52,722 bases of DNA from Candidatus Woesearchaeota archaeon (GTDB lineage: Archaea; Nanobdellota; Nanobdellia; Woesearchaeales; WJKR01). Below the pieces are notes generated by a model. That model searched no databases, was not told the origin of the DNA, and saw only the letters and a list, made by a program, of their open reading frames with translations. This document shows positions 2,404-36,798 of this stretch, one piece after another (positions within the stretch are counted from its first letter, which is position 1; each line of letters begins with the position of its first letter). Made by a program: the position numbers and the translations under genes. The stretch is taken from assembly GCA_016927245.1 (NCBI GenBank), contig JAFGNA010000003.1:1-52722 (forward strand), read 5' to 3'.

Positions 2404-2801
2404 TTTTAATGTTTTTTCCCACTAGTCGCCTCTGCCCGTAACTTCTTTAAATCTTGCATTCCTCTTCAAATGCATGTCTCCTGACTCTGGCGATGAACAA
2501 TCTCTACCCATAGTGTGGCATCATGGTCACCGTGACCTCTGTTAAGAACACAACGTCTTCGTCTGCCATTTCAGCTACAATCAGCAAATCATAGGTAAGT
2601 CATTTCATTTCGTGCGTGCGTCCCTTGCTTAAAAGTAAAGGCAGGGCTCATCCAAGACTACCGCTCTTCGTTCATTCGAGTCATGAAGAGCAGGCTGCAA
2701 ACGTAGTGATGACAAGACAAGCGCTCCTCTTAGGACCGACACCTTTTTATACTCCTTTTGCGCGGAGGGTTCCATCGCTTTTTAGAGGAGGTTGTGGAAC
2801 A
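2404..2801. other. Intergenic segment, transition from AT-rich to GC-rich DNA
   Basis: No convincing gene. Frames here are short and lack a proper start. A TATA-like element (TTTTTATACT, about 2746-2755) and a strong Shine-Dalgarno (GGAGGT, 2787-2792) at the right end belong to the small gene starting at 2802. Composition shifts in this stretch, so it is a likely boundary of the imported methylation locus. Confidence 0.5.
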
Positions 2802-3080
2802 ATGGAAGATAAGACAAGCTTATTCATCGTCGCGATGGTCGGCATCGTTGGTATCATCGGACTCGTCGTCCTCGTCATGGGACTCGGAGTAAGAGCTCCC
2901 GCTGCTGATACGGGCACGCTCGCCGGGGACGCAAGGGCGTACAGGACCTTTTCTACTGGCGAGCCTGGCTGTTATTGCTGTCCGAGCGGCTCCACCGGCT
3001 CATCCTATGACTTATTGAATAGGTGCATCCATGTGAATCCTTGCGGCTGCCCTTCAGACCTCCCTGTGGTGGTGAGGTAG
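2802..3080 (+). CDS. Small membrane-anchored Cys-rich secreted protein
   Basis: A 92-residue protein with a short polar N-terminus (MEDKTS), a single transmembrane segment at about residues 7-31 and an outward, short Cys-rich tail containing CYCCPSG, RC and PCGCP. The ATG at 2802 has GGAGGT nine bases upstream and starts exactly before the membrane anchor, so longer upstream frames are rejected. It belongs to the same general type as the genes at 4903, 5219 and 10105 (N-terminal anchor plus Cys-rich domain), but its Cys spacing differs. Paired cysteines suggest disulfides or metal binding outside the cell; the function is unknown. Confidence 0.65.
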   Translation: MEDKTSLFIVAMVGIVGIIGLVVLVMGLGVRAPAADTGTLAGDARAYRTFSTGEPGCYCCPSGSTGSSYDLLNRCIHVNPCGCPSDLPVVVR

Positions 3081-4902: not shown

Positions 4903-5160
4903 ATGCGCGCCGGCTGGCTCCTCTCCCTCATCATGGTCTTGGGCATCGTCTTCCTCTTCCTCCTCTTCTTCCACTCCCTGCCCAAGCCTGAGGGGGAATT
5001 CCTCGTGGATTGCGACCGGCTCGGCGGGGTCTGCCAGTCCTCGGACTCCGTGTGCGGGGAGGGCTATGCCAATAGGGGGAGCTGCGTGCGGGGGGGTTGG
5101 GCGCGAGGGGCGGGTATCTGCTGCGTGCCGACGGGCACTGGCCTGACAGGCGGTGCTTGA
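4903..5160 (+). CDS. Membrane-anchored Cys-rich microprotein (CC-x-P family)
   Basis: 85 residues: short basic start, one transmembrane helix at about residues 5-25, then an extracellular domain with the pattern C-x6-C-x6-C-x9-C-x11-CC-x-P (GGVC, GSC, CCVP). The same pattern occurs in the protein at 10105-10359 and, with extra cysteines, in the next gene at 5219. Even cysteine numbers suggest disulfide bonds. TTAAATA at about 4870-4876 lies some 28 nt before the ATG, so the transcript is probably leaderless. No known family was recognised; surface function unknown. Confidence 0.75.
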   Translation: MRAGWLLSLIMVLGIVFLFLLFFHSLPKPEGEFLVDCDRLGGVCQSSDSVCGEGYANRGSCVRGGWARGAGICCVPTGTGLTGGA

Positions 5161-5218
5161 CTGCGGGCCGCTCAGAAAAAGAAGTTTTTTATAGGGGTAA
5201 GGCAAGGGTTTTCTATCT

Positions 5219-5449
5219 ATGGAACGACTCATCCGCTCCGTCATCATCCTCGCCGTCTTGACTTTGTTCGTCTTTGTCCTCGTCACCTCGTTGTTCGATC
5301 GCGTCACGGGTGGCGAGTGCGGCAGGGATTGCGCGTGCAGGGGCGGCGTGTGCGTGGAGCACGGCTGCCCCGCGAACACGACTAGGGACTTCCTTGCTGC
5401 GTGCCCGGGCGAGCCGCTCGTGGTGTGTTGCGTGCCGGCGCAGGGCTAG
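5219..5449 (+). CDS. Membrane-anchored Cys-rich microprotein (CC-x-P family)
   Basis: 76 residues with one transmembrane helix at about 5-25 (SVIILAVLTLFVFVLVTSLF) and a Cys-rich tail: ECGRDCACRGGVC, HGCP, AACP and a final CCVP. It shares GGVC and CC-x-P with its upstream neighbour at 4903 and looks like a tandem, diverged copy. A TATA-like TTTTTATA at 5186-5193 is about 28 nt before the ATG, so each copy has its own promoter. Function unknown; extracellular disulfide-stabilised fold is inferred. Confidence 0.75.
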   Translation: MERLIRSVIILAVLTLFVFVLVTSLFDRVTGGECGRDCACRGGVCVEHGCPANTTRDFLAACPGEPLVVCCVPAQG

Positions 5450-10104: not shown

Positions 10105-10359
10105 TCAGCCGGGGACGGGCAGGCAGCAGATGCGGTCGTCCGTGCGGCCGTCGCTGTCATAGCACGAGCCGCGGTTGTACTTGGTGTAGCCGTCGCCGCA
10201 CTCGTTGTCATCGATGCACACCCCGCCGTTCACTTCGCAGTCCTGGGTGCGGAAGCGTCCAATCTCGCTGAGGAAGATAGCGGCGATGACGACGAGCACG
10301 AGGAGCGCGATGGCGGCGATGACGATGGTGTTCATGGACAATCCTTGGGCTTTCTTCAT
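10105..10359 (-). CDS. Class III signal-peptide protein with CC-x-P Cys-rich domain
   Basis: 84 residues. The start MKKAQGLSMNTIVIAAIALL is a textbook archaeal class III (prepilin/preflagellin) signal: basic residues, A-Q-G-L-S cleavage context and a hydrophobic helix. The mature part carries DC-x6-C-x5-C-x11-C-x11-CC-x-P, nearly the same spacing as the protein at 4903. GAGGTG precedes the ATG. This makes it likely that the Cys-rich domain is displayed on, or assembled by, the type IV pilus-like machinery encoded at 28-37 kb. First gene of an operon with the DUF362 protein. Confidence 0.8.
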   Translation of the reverse strand: MKKAQGLSMNTIVIAAIALLVLVVIAAIFLSEIGRFRTQDCEVNGGVCIDDNECGDGYTKYNRGSCYDSDGRTDDRICCLPVPG

Positions 10360-24342: not shown

Positions 24343-24788
24343 TGAACCACGACGAATTCCAACACAAGATACTCGACAAGCCAGAAGCACAACAGAAGAA
24401 GACCTACCGCGTGCACGCAGACACCCACTACGGCGTCGTGTGCGGCATGATGCCCGCGGACTACAACGAGCGGCGAAGCGACACGCACCCCGTAAGCGCG
24501 AGCAGCCTCGAAGAAGCCTGTATCAACGGCTACGAGCGAGCGATAAGCTTCGGCGTGGGCTGGCTGCCCCAAACAGAAGGACACATCGGCATCGTCATCA
24601 CCGGCCTCGACGACGGCAAGACCATCATCGACCTCGAGGAGATGGCACGCATACTGGAGCCCAAAGCCAGACAAACGACCAACGTGCAGGAGTACAAGAG
24701 CAGCAAGGGCATACTGTACAGGCACGACCTCCTCCAAGAATTCATGCGAAGAGAGAAAGGGCTCAGACGAGCGATATGGAACGACTAA
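24339..24788 (+). CDS. Hypothetical soluble protein
   Basis: 149 residues with no signal peptide. Contains VHADTHYGVVCGMM and EEACINGYERAISFGVGWLP; no known motif. ATGATG start at 24339 or 24342 overlaps the previous TGA. Its end overlaps the convergent lipoprotein gene by 4 nt. Last gene of the micro-ORF cascade. Confidence 0.6.
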   Translation: MMNHDEFQHKILDKPEAQQKKTYRVHADTHYGVVCGMMPADYNERRSDTHPVSASSLEEACINGYERAISFGVGWLPQTEGHIGIVITGLDDGKTIIDLEEMARILEPKARQTTNVQEYKSSKGILYRHDLLQEFMRREKGLRRAIWND

Positions 24789-25126
24789 TACCCCTCCCAG
24801 CCCTCAGGACGAGGATAGCAGCACACGTGCAAGCTGAGGAAACCAGCCACCTCGCCGATCACTTCCTGCTCATCAGAGCACCGCTCGCCGCCACCGTAAT
24901 CGATGACGCCGCCGCCTTCCGCGTCGCAATCATTCACCGTCATGAGCTTGACATGCTCGCCCTCCTCGGGGCAGTATGACTCCCACGGGTCAAGGCAGCT
25001 CCCCAAGGACGGGCACCACTCCTCACGAGGCCCGCAACGCTCATCGACAGCCCTGCTCGTCAAGGCATCGCCGCACCCGGCCAAGAGCAAGGACGAGCAC
25101 AGCATGATGGCGATGGCGTAGCGCAT
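24785..25126 (-). CDS. Cys-rich lipoprotein
   Basis: 113 residues. A short basic start and hydrophobic core end with the lipobox LLLAGC (Cys 18), so the mature protein should be lipid-anchored. The mature part has cysteines in RCGPREEWCPSLGSC, YCPE, NDC, GERC and a final CCYP, echoing the CC-x-P motif of the microproteins at 4903, 5219 and 10105. Presence of an LspA gene at 52497 supports lipoprotein processing. Function unknown. Confidence 0.7.
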   Translation of the reverse strand: MRYAIAIMLCSSLLLAGCGDALTSRAVDERCGPREEWCPSLGSCLDPWESYCPEEGEHVKLMTVNDCDAEGGGVIDYGGGERCSDEQEVIGEVAGFLSLHVCCYPRPEGWEGY

Positions 25127-28118: not shown

Positions 28119-28559
28119 GTGGGCAGAGCGCAATTCGCTATGGAGTACTTGTTGGTCGTCGGCTTCTCACTAGCCATCATCATCCCCGTCACCGCCCTGC
28201 TGTATGGCGAGTACCAGGAGAGCAAGACCGAGCTCGACCTCGAGCACCTCACTGAGGTGGCACGGGAGCTCGTGTTCCAAGCGGAGAAGCTGTACTACCA
28301 GGGCGCGCCGTCCTCGACCACGGTCGAGGCCTCGTTCCCGAACGGCGTCACCAGGGCGGCGGTCGTGCGCGACCTCGATTCGGGCGTCTCTTCCGTCGAG
28401 TTCGAGATCAGCCGCTCGGACGTCGTGGTATACGCTGACAGCAAGGTGCCGCTCCAACCGACCGAGTTCGGCACCTACCCCGGACCGCACCGCATCAGCC
28501 TCGTCGTGGATGACAAGATGGGGTCTGATGGCGACGTGGTGGTGCTCACGGACCGCTAG
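28119..28559 (+). CDS. Type IV pilin-like protein
   Basis: 146 residues from a GTG. The N-terminus GRAQFAMEYLLVVGFSLAII is a class III prepilin signal: a short basic leader, A/Q-F cleavage area, then a 20-residue hydrophobic helix beginning A-M-E-Y-L with the conserved Glu. The rest is a beta-rich globular domain. First gene of the pilus locus that runs to 37019. It is probably a pilin subunit of the fibre. Confidence 0.8.
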   Translation: MGRAQFAMEYLLVVGFSLAIIIPVTALLYGEYQESKTELDLEHLTEVARELVFQAEKLYYQGAPSSTTVEASFPNGVTRAAVVRDLDSGVSSVEFEISRSDVVVYADSKVPLQPTEFGTYPGPHRISLVVDDKMGSDGDVVVLTDR

Positions 28560-28579
28560 AAGAGAGGTGAAACAGGATC

Positions 28580-29005
28580 TTGAAGCAGCGAGCCGGCCAG
28601 ATAGCCTATGAGTTCCTCCTCATGATATTCTTCTTCACCGCCACGTTCACGGTGTGGATCGTGCTCTCCGCCGCCGCGCAGGAAGACTTGCGCTGGCAGC
28701 ACGAGGAGCGCGTCATCGAGGACCTCGCGCTCCAATTGCAGGATGACCTCTACCTCTCAGCACAACTCCCTGAAGGCTACCGAAGGAATATCTCGTTGCC
28801 CGGCGCCGTCGTGGGCAAGGACTACGACCTCATCCTCTACGACCCTGTCAGCGGCGCACCTTACTTCACTATCGCCTGCGAGGACCACCTCGTCGAGAAG
28901 GACCTCCCTGAAATCTCTTTGCCCGGCGACGAACAGGCCTATACCGCTGACAGGCTGCTCATCATCACTAACCATGCCGGCTCCTTGGAGGTGGGGTCAC
29001 CATGA
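28580..29005 (+). CDS. Type IV pilin-like protein, minor subunit
   Basis: 141 residues from a TTG with GAGGTG eleven bases upstream. Class III-like N-terminus KQRAGQIAYEFLLMIFFFTA (conserved Glu in Y-E-F-L), then a globular domain with a charged helix and beta strands. Its end overlaps the next ATG (ATGA). Confidence 0.75.
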   Translation: MKQRAGQIAYEFLLMIFFFTATFTVWIVLSAAAQEDLRWQHEERVIEDLALQLQDDLYLSAQLPEGYRRNISLPGAVVGKDYDLILYDPVSGAPYFTIACEDHLVEKDLPEISLPGDEQAYTADRLLIITNHAGSLEVGSP

Positions 29006-29514
29006 GCAGGAGGGGGCAGCACATCGTCTTCGGCAGCATCTTCCTCCTCTTCATATTCTTCCTCGTCATCACCATCTTCTTCGATGACCTCTTCTACGGC
29101 AAGGAGCTGCAGTCAGCCACGCACGACGTCCTCCTGCGAGAAGCGGCCAGGGCAACGGACAGCCTCGCCAGGGAAGGCTACCCTGTTGACTGGGACCAAA
29201 CCGCCGTGCGACGCGTCGGGCTCACCACGGATGGCGTCTTCGACCAGTATAAGTTCTCCAACCTCCAAGGGCTCTTCACTAGCGTCGGCTATGAACAGCT
29301 CAAGCCCCTCCTCGGCGTCCAGCACGACTACTTCCTCATGATAGACCTGCCCGGGGGAGACCCCTCCGCGGCGGAGGCCGTGTACGGCGACGGCTTCGCC
29401 GACGAGCAGGAACTCATCGATGCCGAGCCGACACACCTCGCTACGCAGACCAGGCACCTCCACGACAAGGAAGGAAATCCCGTCACCATCACCCTCCACC
29501 TCTACATCCCCTGA
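29002..29514 (+). CDS. Membrane-anchored pilus locus protein
   Basis: 170 residues. N-terminal SRRGQHIVFGSIFLLFIFFLV is a prepilin-like or uncleaved anchor (the expected Glu is absent, replaced by Gly-Ser), followed by a soluble domain ending HLYIP. It overlaps the previous gene by 4 nt and precedes the VWA gene by 9 nt. Minor pilin or assembly factor by context. Confidence 0.7.
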   Translation: MSRRGQHIVFGSIFLLFIFFLVITIFFDDLFYGKELQSATHDVLLREAARATDSLAREGYPVDWDQTAVRRVGLTTDGVFDQYKFSNLQGLFTSVGYEQLKPLLGVQHDYFLMIDLPGGDPSAAEAVYGDGFADEQELIDAEPTHLATQTRHLHDKEGNPVTITLHLYIP

Positions 29515-29523
29515 TGAATTAAG

Positions 29524-32253
29524 ATGCAACGAAAATCCCAGCTCATGGAACTCGACCTCATCGTCGCCATTGCCATACTCATAGCAGGGCTCATAGCCCT
29601 CAAGACGATGTACATCCACTCCTATGACTCACCGCAGCTCCAGACGAGCGCCCAGGACGCCGTGCGCTCGCTCCAGGCAAGGACGGTCGGCACGCTTGAC
29701 CAAAGCCTGATAGAAGGCCTCCAAGCAACGCTCGGCCCTGACGCGCTGGAACTCGACGAGACCATCGCGCGGCAACTGCTCATCCTCTACATCAACGGCC
29801 ACCACGAAGAGGCGTCCTTGCTCGCAAAGTACGCCCTCAACGACCTCCTCCCCGGTATGCACTACAACGTCACCGTGCTGAGCAAGTCAGAAACCATTCC
29901 TGAACAGGACGAGCGCTACTCCCTGGTCGCGGACCACGAACCGGTGGAGCAAGCGGCCACCCAGTCGCGCATCATGCTCTCAGGGCTCCAAGTGGCGAAG
30001 CCGGTGTACGGCTACACCGCCACGGCCTACCTCACCAGCGGCCGGGCCGAGCGGGCCAGCCACGCCCGTTTCGGCGGCTTCGTCGGCCAGGGGGACATCA
30101 CCGTCCGCCTCGACCTCCCCAGCGACGTCACGCTGCCGGGCGACCTCCGATCGTTCATCCTCGAAGGCGACATCCACGCTGACTTCGACGTCAACGTCAA
30201 TGGCGATTACTGCTTCCAAGTCCTCGACATCGACTCGTCGCCTGGCGAGGTAGACGTGCGGCGGTGGGACCTCCTGCTCCCCTGTGGCAACTTTCTCGAG
30301 CCAGGGACCAACGAGGTCACCGTCGAGTTCACCACGTCCGACACCGACAACCATTACATCGGCGGCGGCTACCTCAAGGCGACCTACGCCGACGACGCCG
30401 TCTACGGCGTCTCGCCCACGGTGAAGGAACGGCACTACCTCCCCGGCATCGCCGGCGTGTTCAACCTGTACGACGCAGTCTACATCCCTGGCGAGCTCCT
30501 CAGCATGGACATCCGACTCCACTACGACTCCGACCACACCAACACCAACAACACCGTGTTCTTCACCTTGGGGAGCGAGCTCCTCTACATGGACAACACC
30601 AGCACCGCCGTCGTCGATCACACCATCAGCGACAGCGAGATCAGCGCCGCGCTGGACTATGGCGACTTCGAGAACCAGACCGTGCCGTTCAGGATGGGCT
30701 TCGACAACGGCTCGCTCGAACTGCTCGCGTCCAACATCATCGACGCCGTGCTCGTCACCGACGTGAGCGGGAGCATGGACTGGCGGTTCGACATCAACTC
30801 GGCAACCAACAGTTACGACCGCGGTTGCTACGACCCCGACCTGTACGACAACTCCACGAAGAGGCTCTCAGTGGCGAAGTGCGCGAGCAAGAACTTCACC
30901 AGCCTCATCCTCAATGATGACAACCAGTTCCTGGAGCCGAACAGGATAGGGCTGGTGAGCTATAACGGCGCGCTCAGGGAGTCGTTCGACCTCTCCTCCT
31001 CAGAATCCGATGTCGTCGCTGAGATAGATGGTTACAGCGCTGGCGGCAGCACTTGCATCTGCTGCGGCATCCTAGAGGCCGCTCGCATGATTGAGGATGA
31101 CTATCACGGGACTGATTGGGAGAACGTCACCCGAGCGATGGTCATCATGACGGACGGCGTCGCGAACGTCAACTGTCCCCTCCTCAATAATTGGGAGCCT
31201 TACGCCGCGGTGAGCGGCGTGGGCGACCTGGATAACAACGGCTACGTCAACCAAGGCGGCGATTACGCCGTCGCGGCCGCGAATTACTCGTTCCACGAGT
31301 ACAACATCAGCATCTACACCGTCGGCATCGGCACGCTGGACCGCATCGACAACAAAACCCTGTATTACATGGCAGCGGTGGACAACAAGAGCCACTACAA
31401 GCGCGCCACCAGCCCCGAGGCCCTCATCGACATCTACAATGACATCGCCCGCGACATCATCCGTATCGCTGACTACAATGCCCAGGTCATCTCGTTCGAG
31501 GTCGATGTTGAGGACTCCGAGCTTTTTCATGACTCCTACATCGAGTACGAGTACCGGCCGTACGCCCTGCCAGCCTTGAATGGGAAGCTGCTCATCGACG
31601 GCGAACGTTCACCATTCTCGAGTTCAGGGGCTTGCGAGGCAGACGTCGGCTTCCCCGACGCGGTCCTCCCTGTCGAGGGCGTCATCACGAGCTATTCCGG
31701 CAATCACTGGACTGATTACTTGGGCGTCAACGACGAGGATATCTTCGACCTCTCAGACTACCTCAACGACTACGAATCGTTGGGCGACCCGTTCACCATC
31801 GGCATCCCGCCAGGCGTCATGAGCCGGGGACTGAACACGTTCACCTTGCGCACCGCTGATGACCCGGGAGATCCTAAGGGGTGCTCCCCTGATGACAAGC
31901 TCCTCTACACCGCGGCCATCAACAACACGTTCGTCCTCGGCGGCGTTTACGAGGAAGCAGAGGGATGCCTCTGGGACGTGCTCATGCTCGGCGACCTGGT
32001 CGAGGACATTCGCATACCCTCTGATTACGCGGGCGATGAACATTGTACCTACACCGGCGGCGGCCCCGGTTCGGGAGAGGATGACGTCTGGCGGGCGCTC
32101 GCGCTCGACGTGTTCAGCTCGTTCGACCTCGACAATGACGGCGACCTCGAGGTCAGCTTCGACGAGGAGGAGCTCGAGTTCAACGCCGTTGAGCAGGAGG
32201 ACATCCCGTACCTGTGGGGCCCTGCTTTGCTGGAGGTGACCGTATGGCGCTGA
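29524..32253 (+). CDS. Giant von Willebrand factor A-domain surface protein of the pilus locus
   Basis: 909 residues. One N-terminal transmembrane helix near 12-30, 370 residues of beta-rich extracellular sequence, then a VWA domain at about 405-640 with the MIDAS motif DVSGSM near 412 and a later TDG near 541 (metal-dependent adhesion site). A CICCGILE cluster lies inside the VWA domain, an unusual insertion. After it come beta-rich domains with several Cys. Probably the pilus tip or adhesin, by analogy to VWA-containing tip proteins. It overlaps the next gene by 10 nt. Confidence 0.8.
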   Translation: MQRKSQLMELDLIVAIAILIAGLIALKTMYIHSYDSPQLQTSAQDAVRSLQARTVGTLDQSLIEGLQATLGPDALELDETIARQLLILYINGHHEEASLLAKYALNDLLPGMHYNVTVLSKSETIPEQDERYSLVADHEPVEQAATQSRIMLSGLQVAKPVYGYTATAYLTSGRAERASHARFGGFVGQGDITVRLDLPSDVTLPGDLRSFILEGDIHADFDVNVNGDYCFQVLDIDSSPGEVDVRRWDLLLPCGNFLEPGTNEVTVEFTTSDTDNHYIGGGYLKATYADDAVYGVSPTVKERHYLPGIAGVFNLYDAVYIPGELLSMDIRLHYDSDHTNTNNTVFFTLGSELLYMDNTSTAVVDHTISDSEISAALDYGDFENQTVPFRMGFDNGSLELLASNIIDAVLVTDVSGSMDWRFDINSATNSYDRGCYDPDLYDNSTKRLSVAKCASKNFTSLILNDDNQFLEPNRIGLVSYNGALRESFDLSSSESDVVAEIDGYSAGGSTCICCGILEAARMIEDDYHGTDWENVTRAMVIMTDGVANVNCPLLNNWEPYAAVSGVGDLDNNGYVNQGGDYAVAAANYSFHEYNISIYTVGIGTLDRIDNKTLYYMAAVDNKSHYKRATSPEALIDIYNDIARDIIRIADYNAQVISFEVDVEDSELFHDSYIEYEYRPYALPALNGKLLIDGERSPFSSSGACEADVGFPDAVLPVEGVITSYSGNHWTDYLGVNDEDIFDLSDYLNDYESLGDPFTIGIPPGVMSRGLNTFTLRTADDPGDPKGCSPDDKLLYTAAINNTFVLGGVYEEAEGCLWDVLMLGDLVEDIRIPSDYAGDEHCTYTGGGPGSGEDDVWRALALDVFSSFDLDNDGDLEVSFDEEELEFNAVEQEDIPYLWGPALLEVTVWR

Positions 32254-33194
32254 CCAAGAAGGCGTACTTCTTCAGCCTCGCCGTGCTCCTCTTCCTCGCG
32301 GTCCTGACCGTCTTCCTCTCCTCGCGCGCCGACCCCGGCTTCACCCGGCAATCAGCGGTGCACGCGCAGCGCATCGCAGAGGTGCAATCGTTCCTCGACG
32401 CGGTCGAGCGCGACGCGGACACGGCGCTGTACGTCGCTTCTTATCGCTCATTCCTCGTCCTCGATCAGGAAGTGCTGTATAAGGAAGACAAGTGGGTGAA
32501 CGAGGATGATTGGTCGGCTAGTTTTGATGACGCGTACGAGGAGCTCGTCCTCTATGGCACGCTCGTCGGCGAACCGATAGCGCTCACCGACGGGTACGAC
32601 ATCGAGCAGTGGCTGGAGAACCTCGACTCCCTCACGCAACACTTGCGGCTCGACCTCGCCATCACCGGCCTCGAGGTGCGCGCACGGCAGGACGACCCCT
32701 GGCATGTCAAGACGAGCCTCACCGGCCAGTTGCGCCTCCACGACGCGTTCACCGATTCGGTCTGGGACTACGCGTTCGCGGCTGAGACCGACGTGCCCGT
32801 CACCCTGCTCAACGACCCAGTATACACGAAGGGGACGGGTCAGCGCTACGCCCAGCGCATCACGATGAGCCCGCACGCCCCTGAAGGGCCAGTTCCTGTG
32901 TCTGCGATGCAGGATCACATCGAGGAGCCTTGGTACGTGGCGACCGGGGAGGGGGTGGGCTTCCTCGACCGGCTGCAAGGCCGCTTCACGCCTTCCGCTA
33001 ATGGCATCGAGAGCCTGGTCGACGTCCGCCTTATGCAGGCGATTGGCGTCCTGCGGGAAGAAGCTGCTTCCATCGTCGACTGGCAGTACCTAGTCTTACC
33101 AGAAACCGCTGATTGCGTCCTCGAGGGCGTCCCGGAACCATGGGCTTTGGTGCCCGCCAGTAGGAGTGATGACTATGCGTGTAGCCAGCCATAA
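32244..33194 (+). CDS. Membrane-anchored extracellular protein of the pilus locus
   Basis: 316 residues starting MALTKKAYFFS with a transmembrane helix at about 8-24, then a soluble domain of about 290 residues with an early helical part (QSAVHAQRIAEVQSFLDAVE) and a beta-rich remainder with Cys near the end. Overlaps the VWA gene, so translationally coupled. It may be a minor pilin with a large head; family not recognised. Confidence 0.65.
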   Translation: MALTKKAYFFSLAVLLFLAVLTVFLSSRADPGFTRQSAVHAQRIAEVQSFLDAVERDADTALYVASYRSFLVLDQEVLYKEDKWVNEDDWSASFDDAYEELVLYGTLVGEPIALTDGYDIEQWLENLDSLTQHLRLDLAITGLEVRARQDDPWHVKTSLTGQLRLHDAFTDSVWDYAFAAETDVPVTLLNDPVYTKGTGQRYAQRITMSPHAPEGPVPVSAMQDHIEEPWYVATGEGVGFLDRLQGRFTPSANGIESLVDVRLMQAIGVLREEAASIVDWQYLVLPETADCVLEGVPEPWALVPASRSDDYACSQP

Positions 33195-33200
33195 CAGAAA

Positions 33201-33240
33201 GATATATAAACTATCAGGCGAGAGGACTGCTATAAAAAGG
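33201..33240 (+). promoter_or_regulatory. Two TATA-like elements before the pilus ATPase gene
   Basis: GATATATAAA at 33201-33210 and TATAAAAAGG at 33231-33240, the first giving a transcript start near 33235 and a short leader with GAGGAG at 33245-33250. This gives the assembly genes (33253-37019) an independent promoter from the pilin genes. Confidence 0.6.
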
Positions 33241-33252
33241 GGTTGAGGAGTC

Positions 33253-34779
33253 ATGGGAGAGGAACAACCGACTACATCTTCGGTGCCCGCAGCCAAGCAA
33301 CGGGCGCCGGCTGCTGAGGGGCCGAAAATCCTTGAGCAGTACAGCACCCAGGTCAGGAACATCCAGGTCAATGTGGTCATCGAGGCTAAGCCTGACTCGT
33401 ACACGTCCACGTACGGCGTGAGCATCAGCGGCATCAGCAAGACCACGGAGATAATCCTTGAGGAGATTCGTGAGGAGCTTATCAGGAAGATGGAGCTCGA
33501 GGATCTCTCAGTAGACGAGTCGACCGGCGAGGTCGACCGGCAGTTCGACGCGGAGCTCAACCGCCAGATCAACCTGTACTTCGCGTACGAGGCCGACGAG
33601 ACCAAGAACGTGCTGCGCAGTTACATACTCTCTAGGAGCCTCGGCATGGGCTACGTCGACTTCTTGCTCCATGACGTGCACCTCGAGGAGATCGCCATCG
33701 ACAACGCGCACGACCCTATTTGGGTGTACCATCGCAAGTGGGGATGGTTGCAGACCAATATCTACATGAGTAGCGAGGACCAGATACAACAGGCCGCTTC
33801 TCGCATCGGCCGGAACGTTGGCAGGCAGATCAACACGCTTAACCCGTTGCTCGACGCGTTCCTCTCCTCAGGCGAGCGCGTCAACGCGACCATTAGTCCT
33901 ATCACGCCGAGGGGTAACACTATCACCTTGAGAAAGTTCTCAGATGACCCGTGGACCATCACTAAGTTCGTGCAGAACAAGACGATCAGCTCCGAGGTCG
34001 CCGCGATGCTCTGGCAGGCCATCCAGTTCGAGATGAGCATCCTCGTCGTCGGCGGCACCGCCTCTGGCAAGACGAGTACGCTGAACGCCCTCGCCAACTT
34101 CATCCCACCGAACCAGCGCATCATCAGCATCGAGGACACGCGCGAGCTGCGGCTCGCCAGCTACTTGTACTGGGTGCCCATGATGACGAGGTTGCCTAAC
34201 GCTGAGGGCAAGGGCGCCGTGAGCATGGAAGACCTCCTCGTCAACTCTTTGCGCATGCGCCCGGACCGCATCCTCGTCGGCGAGGTGCGCCGCAAGGCAG
34301 AGGCTGAGACCTTGTTCGAGGCCATCCACACCGGCCACAGTTGCTACGGCACGTTCCACGCGAACGACGCCCGCGAGGCCGTCGCTAGGCTCACGAACGA
34401 TCCGGTGAACGTGCCTAAGGCGCTCCTCCCGGCCATCAACCTCTTGCTCGTCCAGTTCCGCAACCGCCGGACGGGCAAGCGCTGCACCTTCCAGGTGGCG
34501 GAGGTCACGGACAAGTGCGAGCATAACGTCCTGTACCAGTATGATGTCAAGCGTGATGCGCTCGTCAGGCAGAACAAGTCTTCTCGCTTCGTCCAGGAGC
34601 TCAGCCTGTTCACAGGTCTCTCCGAGGCGGAGTTGCAGGCGGATCTCAAGGAGAAGCAGTTCATCATCGAGTCGTTGGTGCGGGGGAAGGTGTTCAATAT
34701 CGAGCGGGTGGGCAAGACCATGGCTGATTATTACGCTGACAAGGAGTCGCTGCTCAAGCGGCTGAAAGGGAAGAACTGA
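33253..34779 (+). CDS. Type IV pilus/archaellum-type secretion ATPase (TadA/FlaI/GspE family)
   Basis: 508 residues. Walker A GGTASGKTST near 267, a following Asp box (SIEDTREL near 295) and Walker B DRILVGEVR near 338, then His box HTGHSCYGTFHAND. The N-terminal domain (about 30-230) is family-typical. It should power assembly of the fibre from pilin subunits in the membrane. Followed by the two platform genes. Confidence 0.9.
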   Translation: MGEEQPTTSSVPAAKQRAPAAEGPKILEQYSTQVRNIQVNVVIEAKPDSYTSTYGVSISGISKTTEIILEEIREELIRKMELEDLSVDESTGEVDRQFDAELNRQINLYFAYEADETKNVLRSYILSRSLGMGYVDFLLHDVHLEEIAIDNAHDPIWVYHRKWGWLQTNIYMSSEDQIQQAASRIGRNVGRQINTLNPLLDAFLSSGERVNATISPITPRGNTITLRKFSDDPWTITKFVQNKTISSEVAAMLWQAIQFEMSILVVGGTASGKTSTLNALANFIPPNQRIISIEDTRELRLASYLYWVPMMTRLPNAEGKGAVSMEDLLVNSLRMRPDRILVGEVRRKAEAETLFEAIHTGHSCYGTFHANDAREAVARLTNDPVNVPKALLPAINLLLVQFRNRRTGKRCTFQVAEVTDKCEHNVLYQYDVKRDALVRQNKSSRFVQELSLFTGLSEAELQADLKEKQFIIESLVRGKVFNIERVGKTMADYYADKESLLKRLKGKN

Positions 34780-34802
34780 TGGGGTGAACTGATATAGCGC
34801 GC

Positions 34803-35612
34803 ATGCTTTTCCACAAGCTCGCCACGTACTTCCCATTGCTGGGACAGCATCTCCGCGTGGCGCGCATTGACAAGAGTTCTGAGCGGTTCCTCAAGGAGGC
34901 GGTGTTCTCCTCGTTGGTGTTCTCCCTCGCTTTCTTCTTCGTGTTCCTCATCATCAGCCTGATGCTCTCGTTCAGTCCTGCCATCGCGTTCGTTGCGTTC
35001 TTCATCATCCTCTTCTTCACCTTCTACGCGTTCATCAACAGGCCGCAGTACAACGCGCTCAAGGCCGAGCAGGTCGTCGAGTCAGAGATAGTCTCCGCCG
35101 TGCGCTTCCTCATCCTCGAGCTGCGCTCAGAGAGGAGCCTGTACGGCGCCATCACGAACGTGAGCAGGAACTTCTCTCTCATCGGCATCTACTTTGATGA
35201 GATCATCGACAAGGTTAAGATGGGCAAGACGCTTGAGCAGGCATTGAACGAGGCCGTCGAGTTGTGCCCTTCTCCGCATCTCAGGAACGTGTACTGGCAG
35301 CTCCTCAACAGCCTCCAGACAGGCGCTGACATTACCTCTGCGTTGCAGGTGCTCCTGGATGACATCATCGAGTCCCAGAAGATCCATATCCAGGAGTACG
35401 GCCGCGAGCTCAACGCGCTCAGCCTGTTCTACATGATGGTCAGCATCATCATCCCTACTGTCGGGTTCACCATCATCACCGCGGTGCTCACGTTCATCGG
35501 ATTCCCTATCGGCATCGGCCTGCTCATCGGCGTATGGGTCCTCCTCTCTATCGTGCAGTACTTCTTTCTCATGATAGCGGCCCATAGGCGGCCGACGGTG
35601 GAGGCGTACTAG
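34803..35612 (+). CDS. Pilus assembly platform protein, TadB/C/FlaJ-like, first
   Basis: 269 residues with three to four transmembrane helices and a cytoplasmic T2SF-like domain: paired helices at about 40-80 (VFSLAFFFVFLIISLML and another), a helical loop, and two helices at the end (SIIIPTVGFTIITAVLTFIG). Half of the platform that binds the ATPase. Spaced 23 nt from the ATPase gene and followed without a gap by the second platform gene. Confidence 0.85.
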   Translation: MLFHKLATYFPLLGQHLRVARIDKSSERFLKEAVFSSLVFSLAFFFVFLIISLMLSFSPAIAFVAFFIILFFTFYAFINRPQYNALKAEQVVESEIVSAVRFLILELRSERSLYGAITNVSRNFSLIGIYFDEIIDKVKMGKTLEQALNEAVELCPSPHLRNVYWQLLNSLQTGADITSALQVLLDDIIESQKIHIQEYGRELNALSLFYMMVSIIIPTVGFTIITAVLTFIGFPIGIGLLIGVWVLLSIVQYFFLMIAAHRRPTVEAY

Positions 35613-35613
35613 C

Positions 35614-36798
35614 ATGGCATCGCGGGAACGGCTGAAGGAATCACAAGCTCCTCCTCCTAAGTTTCCTGTCCGCCGAGAGCGTTTGCGCAGGCTGCAGGAG
35701 CCCGAGACGACCATCGATGACTTCTTCCTCAAGGACCGCGCCATCCAGTTCGAGAAGCGTCGCGTCCGCAAGTCGCTCGGAATGTCCGTCTCCGCTACGC
35801 CGATTAAGAAACGGTCGTATTACGACCGGCTCAAGGTGGACTTGTACCGTGCCGGCGTGGACGCCGAGCCTTCCCGCGTCATCAAGCTGATACTCTACCT
35901 GGCCATCGTGGCGCTCGTCGTTGGCGCTGCTGTCATCGGCGGCGTCGCCCTGTACCACTTGTTCCCGTTCGGCACCATCGTCTTGTACCTCTTGGTGTGG
36001 TCAGTGCTCGGCTTCGTCGCGTTGTACTCGTTGGCCGTGCTGCTCCTCAAGGTCTACCTTTCCTACAGGGTGTTCAGGCGGAAGATGGAGGTGGAGCAGG
36101 TCTTGCCGGAGTTCCTCAGGCTCGTCGCGACGAATTATCGGAGCGGGATGCCGCTCGACGAGGCGTTGATCAAGAGCAACCGGCCTCGGTTCGGCATCTT
36201 CTCCAAGGAGATTGAGCTCGTCGCCAAGACGACGAAGGTGAAGGGCGATCTTGCTAAGTCGCTGGAGATATTCAGCAAGAAGTTCGATTCGAAGATTTTG
36301 CAGCGTGCGATGAACAATATCGTGATGAGCGTGAGGAGCGGGTCCAACATTTCCGAGCTTCTCGAGGAGATCGCGAACAACATCACGAAGATGCGCAATA
36401 TGCGCGTCAGCATGGCGGCGAACGTGAAGAACTACATCATCTTCATCATCGTCGCGGGCGTCATCATCGCCCCCTTGATGTTCAGCATGAGCTATACCAT
36501 GAACACTACCATTGCGGGGGTGAAGGCCGGCATGGACGTCTCGTCCATGTCGACGGCGGGGCAGGGATTGCTCAACGTGCAATCAGAGGGCGGCGTCGAC
36601 CCTGGTGATTTCAACGTGTTCGCGTTGCTCATGCTCATCACGAACAGCTTCGTGTCGGCGTTCGTCATCAGCATGCTGAGGTATGGCAACTTCCAGCAGG
36701 GCATCAAGCGCATCCCGGTCTTCCTGGCCATCAGCGTCGCCCTGTATTTCCTGGGCAAGTGGGTGTTGTCCTTGCTCTTGATGAGCACATTCGCGTGA
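35614..36798 (+). CDS. Pilus assembly platform protein, TadB/C/FlaJ-like, second
   Basis: 394 residues. A charged cytoplasmic N-terminus of about 90 residues, two transmembrane helices near 95-145, a T2SF-type cytoplasmic domain (EFLRLVATNYRSGMPLDEAL, NIVMSVRSGSNISELLEEIA) and three or more helices at the end. Pairs with the preceding gene as a heterodimeric platform, the Tad type of arrangement. The start ATG is 1 nt after the previous stop. Confidence 0.85.
   Translation: MASRERLKESQAPPPKFPVRRERLRRLQEPETTIDDFFLKDRAIQFEKRRVRKSLGMSVSATPIKKRSYYDRLKVDLYRAGVDAEPSRVIKLILYLAIVALVVGAAVIGGVALYHLFPFGTIVLYLLVWSVLGFVALYSLAVLLLKVYLSYRVFRRKMEVEQVLPEFLRLVATNYRSGMPLDEALIKSNRPRFGIFSKEIELVAKTTKVKGDLAKSLEIFSKKFDSKILQRAMNNIVMSVRSGSNISELLEEIANNITKMRNMRVSMAANVKNYIIFIIVAGVIIAPLMFSMSYTMNTTIAGVKAGMDVSSMSTAGQGLLNVQSEGGVDPGDFNVFALLMLITNSFVSAFVISMLRYGNFQQGIKRIPVFLAISVALYFLGKWVLSLLLMSTFA

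What the first reader, a model, noticed from the sequence alone, without database searches (positions are those of the whole stretch)
4903..5449. Family of anchored CC-x-P microproteins, with members scattered in the window
Genes at 4903, 5219 and 10105 share C-x6-C, GGVC and a final CC-x-P after an N-terminal helix; the one at 10105 has a class III signal peptide, and the lipoprotein at 24785 ends with CCYP. So one extracellular Cys-rich module is anchored in three ways: helix, pilin-type signal and lipid.
Basis: partly seen in the sequence, partly recalled or inferred. Interest (0 to 1): 0.6.

Follow-up and report, generated by a model that had tools for sequence, protein, structure and literature searches.

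The report
Archaeal pilin-like proteins with defensin-like heads
Three small genes in this archaeal (Woesearchaeota) contig belong to a large, apparently undescribed family in which a pilin-type membrane helix carries a six-cysteine head predicted to fold like an animal beta-defensin, a fold so far reported as restricted to animals.

Summary
Window 4903-5160(+), 5219-5449(+) and 10105-10359(-) are one family: an N-terminal helix (pilin-type signal in 10105 only), then C-x6-C with GGVC, and a final CC-x-P. A profile built without window sequences finds all three (E 8e-9 to 7e-5). The lipoprotein at 24785 is not a member (E 250); a relative of it carries DUF333. A head-only profile against the whole PDB returns 13 hits, all beta-defensin-fold peptides (best E 2e-4). 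AlphaFold models (pLDDT 84 and 91) put defensins first in Foldseek, with non-significant E-values. Pfam's animal Defensin_beta model exceeds its curated cut-off in 4 of 99 related genomes, at members of this family, and in 0 of 14 controls. The family is near-universal in the order (93 of 99 genomes), multi-copy, and often lies in a conserved pilin-like gene cluster; the genome has pilus ATPases, platform proteins and a prepilin peptidase. Heads are mostly acidic (mean net charge -2.3), so I favour a structural or adhesive pilin head over an antimicrobial. Disulfides, filament incorporation and homology to animal defensins are untested.

The parts
4903..5160 (+). 85-aa family member: plain N-terminal helix without prepilin motif, then six-Cys head (C37 to CC, CC-V-P)
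   Evidence: ORF; leave-window-out head-only profile E = 2.4e-5; protein search from 10105 E = 2.0e-7
4999..5139 (+). six-Cys head of the 4903 protein, spacing 6-6-9-12-0, net charge +1
   Evidence: alignment A6; charge
5219..5449 (+). 76-aa family member: plain N-terminal helix, then head with two cysteines more than the usual six (C-x3-C-x-C at its start)
   Evidence: ORF; leave-window-out head-only profile E = 7.4e-5
5315..5446 (+). Cys-rich head of the 5219 protein, net charge -1
   Evidence: alignment A6; charge
10105..10359 (-). 84-aa family member: prepilin-type signal and helix MKKAQGLSMNTIVIAAIALLVLVVI, then six-Cys head
   Evidence: sequence; leave-window-out head-only profile E = 8e-9; AlphaFold model pLDDT 84, helix 5-36 then four short strands
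10108..10251 (-). six-Cys head of the 10105 protein, spacing 6-5-11-11-0, net charge -5
   Evidence: alignment A6; charge; Foldseek ranks 1-3 are beta-defensins, E 0.7-3.6
28119..36798 (+). context: type IV pilus locus of the same contig: pilin-like genes, 909-aa VWA protein, T2SSE ATPase (33253-34779) and two T2SSF platform proteins (34803-35612, 35614-36798)
   Evidence: Pfam T2SSE E = 3e-34, T2SSF E = 7e-11 and 1.4e-15, VWA E = 2.3e-10; gene calls

Best explanation
These are members of a large family of small surface proteins of Woesearchaeota. Most members have an archaeal prepilin-type signal and hydrophobic helix, followed by an extracellular head of about 40 residues with six cysteines. 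The head is predicted to adopt the three-stranded, three-disulfide beta-defensin (trans-defensin) fold. Inferred mechanism: the prepilin peptidase trims the signal, the type IV pilus machine packs the helix into a filament or pilus-like surface complex, DsbA-like proteins oxidise the head, and the compact, mostly acidic knot forms the filament surface or a tip module, giving stability and diversified contact surfaces. The window's 4903 and 5219 genes are derived copies that lost the prepilin motif and stay as membrane-anchored heads. Shown here: the family, its spread, its six-Cys conservation and its clustering with pilin-like genes. Predicted: the fold. Inferred: processing, oxidation, filament incorporation and function.
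For: Family: 93 of 99 genomes of the order, several copies each, often tandem; leave-window-out profile. Six Cys: 30 of 32 homologues have exactly six after the match start. Fold: head-only profile against all PDB sequences gives 13 hits at E <= 10, all of the beta-defensin fold, best 2.1e-4; AlphaFold pLDDT 84 and 91; Foldseek ranks 1-3 and 1-14 are defensin-type peptides; Pfam Defensin_beta over its curated cut-off in 4 of 99 related genomes, 0 of 14 controls, at family members. Pilin link: prepilin-type N-termini; ordered pilin-like genes B-C-D upstream in 16 of 32 loci, homologous to genes beside the genome's C21 copies; pilus ATPases, platform proteins and prepilin peptidase in the genome and in 48 of 50 genomes searched. 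DsbA-like family in 45 of 50. Acidic heads, mean -2.3 over 87.
Against: All Foldseek E-values are above 0.1. AlphaFold may recall defensins from six cysteines. The window proteins themselves do not reach Defensin_beta (no match in this genome). The genome has no VKOR. The three window genes do not lie in the pilin-like cluster and two of them lack the prepilin motif; no Pfam class III signal match. No ATPase homologous to the window's was found in the relatives' clusters.
Confidence: 0.55

Rival explanations
1. Anchored surface heads that never enter a filament: the prepilin-signal proteins form a membrane-bound binding or initiation complex (minor-pilin or bindosome-like), with the head as a ligand-binding knob.
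For: Two window copies lack the prepilin motif; large proteins with the same helix-plus-head start follow the small ones in many loci; giant extracellular protein next to the C21 copies.
Against: Most members keep a prepilin-type N-terminus and the genome keeps a full pilus machine.
Confidence: 0.22
2. Anchored or released antimicrobial peptides used against neighbours or hosts, as animal defensins are.
For: Predicted beta-defensin fold; diversified tandem paralogues.
Against: Heads are mostly acidic: mean net charge -2.3, only 4 of 87 at +2 or more, whereas animal beta-defensins are typically cationic (general knowledge). They sit among pilin-like genes.
Confidence: 0.08
3. A cysteine-rich module whose similarity to beta-defensins is only a shared cysteine spacing; the true fold, or the use of the cysteines (for example metal binding), is different.
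For: Cysteines dominate the profile: six invariant columns. Foldseek E-values are not significant. One member weakly matches a rubredoxin-like model, E = 0.0015.
Against: Five PDB beta-defensin-fold segments score 15.7-22.5 bits against means of 1.5-4.2 for shuffles that hold every Cys in place, reached by 0-2 of 300 shuffles (these five were picked as top hits, so the figure leans upwards). Defensin_beta itself exceeds its curated cut-off at family members.
Confidence: 0.12

Closest known systems
Animal beta-defensins and other trans-defensin-fold peptides (PF00711; beta-defensins 1-3, AvBD11, platypus DLP, crotamine, tick carboxypeptidase inhibitor)
   Same: Six cysteines in the same order with adjacent final pair, often C-x3-GG-x-C, predicted short helix plus three strands; mutual profile matches.
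   Different: Archaeal, on a pilin-type membrane helix, mostly acidic, some longer loops (C4-C5 up to 17); disulfide pairing unknown; the window's own copies do not match PF00711.
Big defensins (oyster, horseshoe crab, amphioxus)
   Same: Hydrophobic N-terminal part followed by a beta-defensin-like domain; 2rng and 8bgk are among the profile hits.
   Different: Here the N-terminal part is predicted as one long helix with, in most members, a prepilin motif; big defensins are soluble immune peptides (PMC7203481).
Archaeal type IV pilins (class III signal peptides)
   Same: KKAQG/KKGQG-type N-terminus and hydrophobic helix, clustering with other pilin-like genes, pilus machine in the genome.
   Different: The head is only about 40 residues and cysteine-locked; the pilus census PMC4858521 describes multi-Cys pilus components in Thermoproteales but no such head in the passages read.
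DUF333 lipoproteins (for the 24785 gene)
   Same: A relative of 24785 has DUF333 after the shared D-x-HGC..WE-x-x-C block.
   Different: 24785 itself has no significant Pfam match.

Membership tests
Beta-defensin / trans-defensin (PF00711) | Six cysteines in order C-C-C-C-CC with short loops | tested here: met
   87 of 87 pattern-selected heads have exactly six Cys; 30 of 32 in the less selected set. 5219 has extra cysteines and 10105 a longer C4-C5 loop.
Beta-defensin / trans-defensin (PF00711) | Score over the curated Pfam cut-off | tested here: not met
   Window genome: no match even at E <= 1. Four related genomes are over the cut-off at family members.
Beta-defensin / trans-defensin (PF00711) | Three-stranded antiparallel sheet fold | tested here: inconclusive
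   Predicted: models pLDDT 84 and 91, Foldseek top hits defensins, E not significant.
Beta-defensin / trans-defensin (PF00711) | Disulfides 1-5, 2-4, 3-6 | not testable with these tools
Beta-defensin / trans-defensin (PF00711) | Cationic antimicrobial character | tested here: not met
   Mean net charge -2.3 over 87 heads; window copies -5, +1, -1. Activity not testable.
Big defensin | Globular hydrophobic N-terminal domain before the beta-defensin domain | tested here: not met
   The model shows one long helix 5-36.
Archaeal type IV pilin (class III signal peptide) | Prepilin-type signal and hydrophobic helix at the N-terminus | tested here: inconclusive
   10105 and most relatives have it by eye; 4903 and 5219 do not; no Pfam class III signal match.
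Archaeal type IV pilin (class III signal peptide) | Prepilin peptidase and assembly machine in the genome | tested here: met
   Peptidase_A24 at G000:C17; T2SSE; T2SSF in the window.
Archaeal type IV pilin (class III signal peptide) | Incorporation into a filament | not testable with these tools
   Needs biochemistry or cryo-EM.
Six-Cys family, lipoprotein 24785 as member | Profile match to the six-Cys head | tested here: not met
   Head-only E = 250 whole, 1.1 C-terminal half, inside shuffles; marginal 0.036 with the full-length profile.

The most novel reading that the evidence does not exclude
The beta-defensin (trans-defensin) fold of these archaeal pilin-like heads shares a common ancestor with the animal fold, so the fold has a prokaryotic reservoir and did not arise in animals.
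Probability: 0.2. Interest if true: 0.9.

Novelty: new variant of a known kind. Interest (0 to 1): 0.72.

Why it matters
A review of big defensins states that trans-defensins arose and evolved exclusively in animals (PMC7203481). An order-wide archaeal family with the same predicted fold would either push the fold's origin outside animals or be a clean case of convergence. It also supplies candidate pilin subunits for a group of uncultivated archaea: the archaeal pilus census (PMC4858521) noted a nanoarchaeal pilus ATPase clade without identified pilins. The heads are short enough to be synthesised and solved directly, so the claim is easy to test.

Tried and rejected
Lipoprotein 24785 as a fourth member: rejected, although its C-terminal half scored marginally (E = 0.036) with the full-length profile. 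Cys-rich ORF 2616-3080: not related by profile. Chance cysteine spacing: rejected. Viral origin: one viral-contig scan found no relative. Alignment A3 was too diverse for a collection scan. NCBIfam and PHROGs give no convincing name. A search outside the phylum was not done, so absence elsewhere is not shown. Paper searches for DPANN with defensin, type IV pili or cysteine-rich proteins found no description of this family; subscription journals are not covered.

Full report
Observation. The three ORFs at 4903-5160(+), 5219-5449(+) and 10105-10359(-) are as described. All share C-x6-C containing GGVC and end the cysteine module with CC-x-P. A profile made only from other genomes ranks them first among all six-frame ORFs of the window: head-only E = 8e-9 (10105), 2.4e-5 (4903) and 7.4e-5 (5219). 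The fourth proposed member, the lipoprotein at 24785, fails with the head-only profile (E = 250 whole, 1.1 for the C-terminal half, inside the range of its own shuffles); with the full-length profile its C-terminal half reached E = 0.036, just above the best of its 500 shuffles. Its relatives share a different block, and one carries DUF333 at E = 1.3e-20. So the anchors shown are a plain helix and a pilin-type signal, not a lipid.

Family. The window is a whole contig of a 1.11-Mb genome. The genome has three more tandem copies on contig C21. A profile of the six copies hits 93 of 99 genomes of the same order, in 89 of 94 genera, usually several per genome and often in tandem. Named relatives are labelled Woesearchaeota, or Nanoarchaeota, Nanoarchaeia, DPANN or just archaeon. 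The head alone is found at E <= 0.01 in 61 of 234 genomes drawn from the class. Outside the order it mostly lies in large proteins; L096 carries several copies in a row before a C-terminal membrane helix. Among 32 homologues collected through helix patterns plus tblastn, 30 have exactly six cysteines after the match start; the tblastn step included the head, so this set is less selected, not unselected. In 87 pattern-selected heads the C1-C2 spacing is 6 in 70, GGxC occurs in 57, and the mean net charge is -2.3.

Fold. A head-only profile searched against every PDB sequence returned 13 hits at E <= 10, all with the beta-defensin fold: tick carboxypeptidase inhibitor (2.1e-4), platypus defensin-like peptide (8.9e-4), beta-defensins, big defensins, crotamine. 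The full-length profile gives the same picture with some helix-driven and other hits. AlphaFold models reach pLDDT 84 (full-length 10105) and 91 (head of the L036 relative). Foldseek ranks 1-3 for the first and 1-14 for the second are defensin-type peptides, with rmsd down to 1.4 A but non-significant E-values. In the reverse direction, Pfam's Defensin_beta model is over its curated cut-off in 4 of 99 related genomes and 0 of 14 controls, and family members lie at those places; at looser E-values the model also rings in most controls, so only the over-cut-off hits count, and this genome itself has none. Five PDB segments score about 13-21 bits above the mean of shuffles that hold the cysteines fixed, with the caveat that they were chosen as top hits. 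I put the fold assignment at about 0.8; disulfide pairing is untested.

Setting. In 16 of 32 loci an ordered run of pilin-like genes (B-C-D) lies upstream of the six-Cys position; these genes are homologous to those next to the genome's own C21 copies. Large proteins with the same helix-plus-head start often follow. The three window genes are not inside such a cluster. The window does hold a type IV pilus locus with pilin-like genes, a VWA protein, an ATPase and two platform proteins. The genome has a prepilin peptidase and DsbA-like proteins but no VKOR.

Mechanism. I favour pilin-like subunits with a disulfide-knot head, mostly acidic and therefore more likely structural or adhesive than lytic. 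Whether they are filament subunits or a tip or binding complex is open. 4903 and 5219 look like derived anchored copies.

Novelty. Paper searches (open-access full text only) found no description of this family. PMC7203481 states that trans-defensins evolved exclusively in animals. The finding is a new variant joining two known kinds, a defensin-like fold and a pilin-type anchor. Homology versus convergence cannot be decided here: the sequences are short and no intermediate family was searched for outside the phylum.

Noticed in passing
28119-36798: Type IV pilus locus with three small pilin-like genes, a 909-aa VWA protein with a pilin-type start, a T2SSE ATPase and two T2SSF platform proteins.
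   Followed up: partly
L068 1999-2865 (G000 contig C21): A 288-aa protein with an N-terminal pilin-like helix and an Amidase_2 domain (E = 8.7e-14), in the same large pilin-like gene cluster as the six-Cys copies.
   Followed up: no
L068 12782-19432 (G000 contig C21): A 2216-aa predicted surface protein with weak Ig-like/PKD matches beside the six-Cys copies; relatives recur in many of the 32 loci.
   Followed up: partly
L096 1153-3045: A 631-aa protein from another order of the class with at least three six-Cys modules in a row before a C-terminal membrane helix; no Pfam match.
   Followed up: partly
24785-25126: Lipoprotein with a D-x-HGC..WC..C..WE-x-x-C block; a more distant relative carries DUF333.
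   Followed up: yes
2616-3080: Another anchored Cys-rich small protein (CYCC..C..C.C), not related to the family by profile.
   Followed up: partly
35-991 and 1618-2403: Two ORFs that look like DNA methyltransferases at the contig's left end (by eye, no profile run).
   Followed up: no
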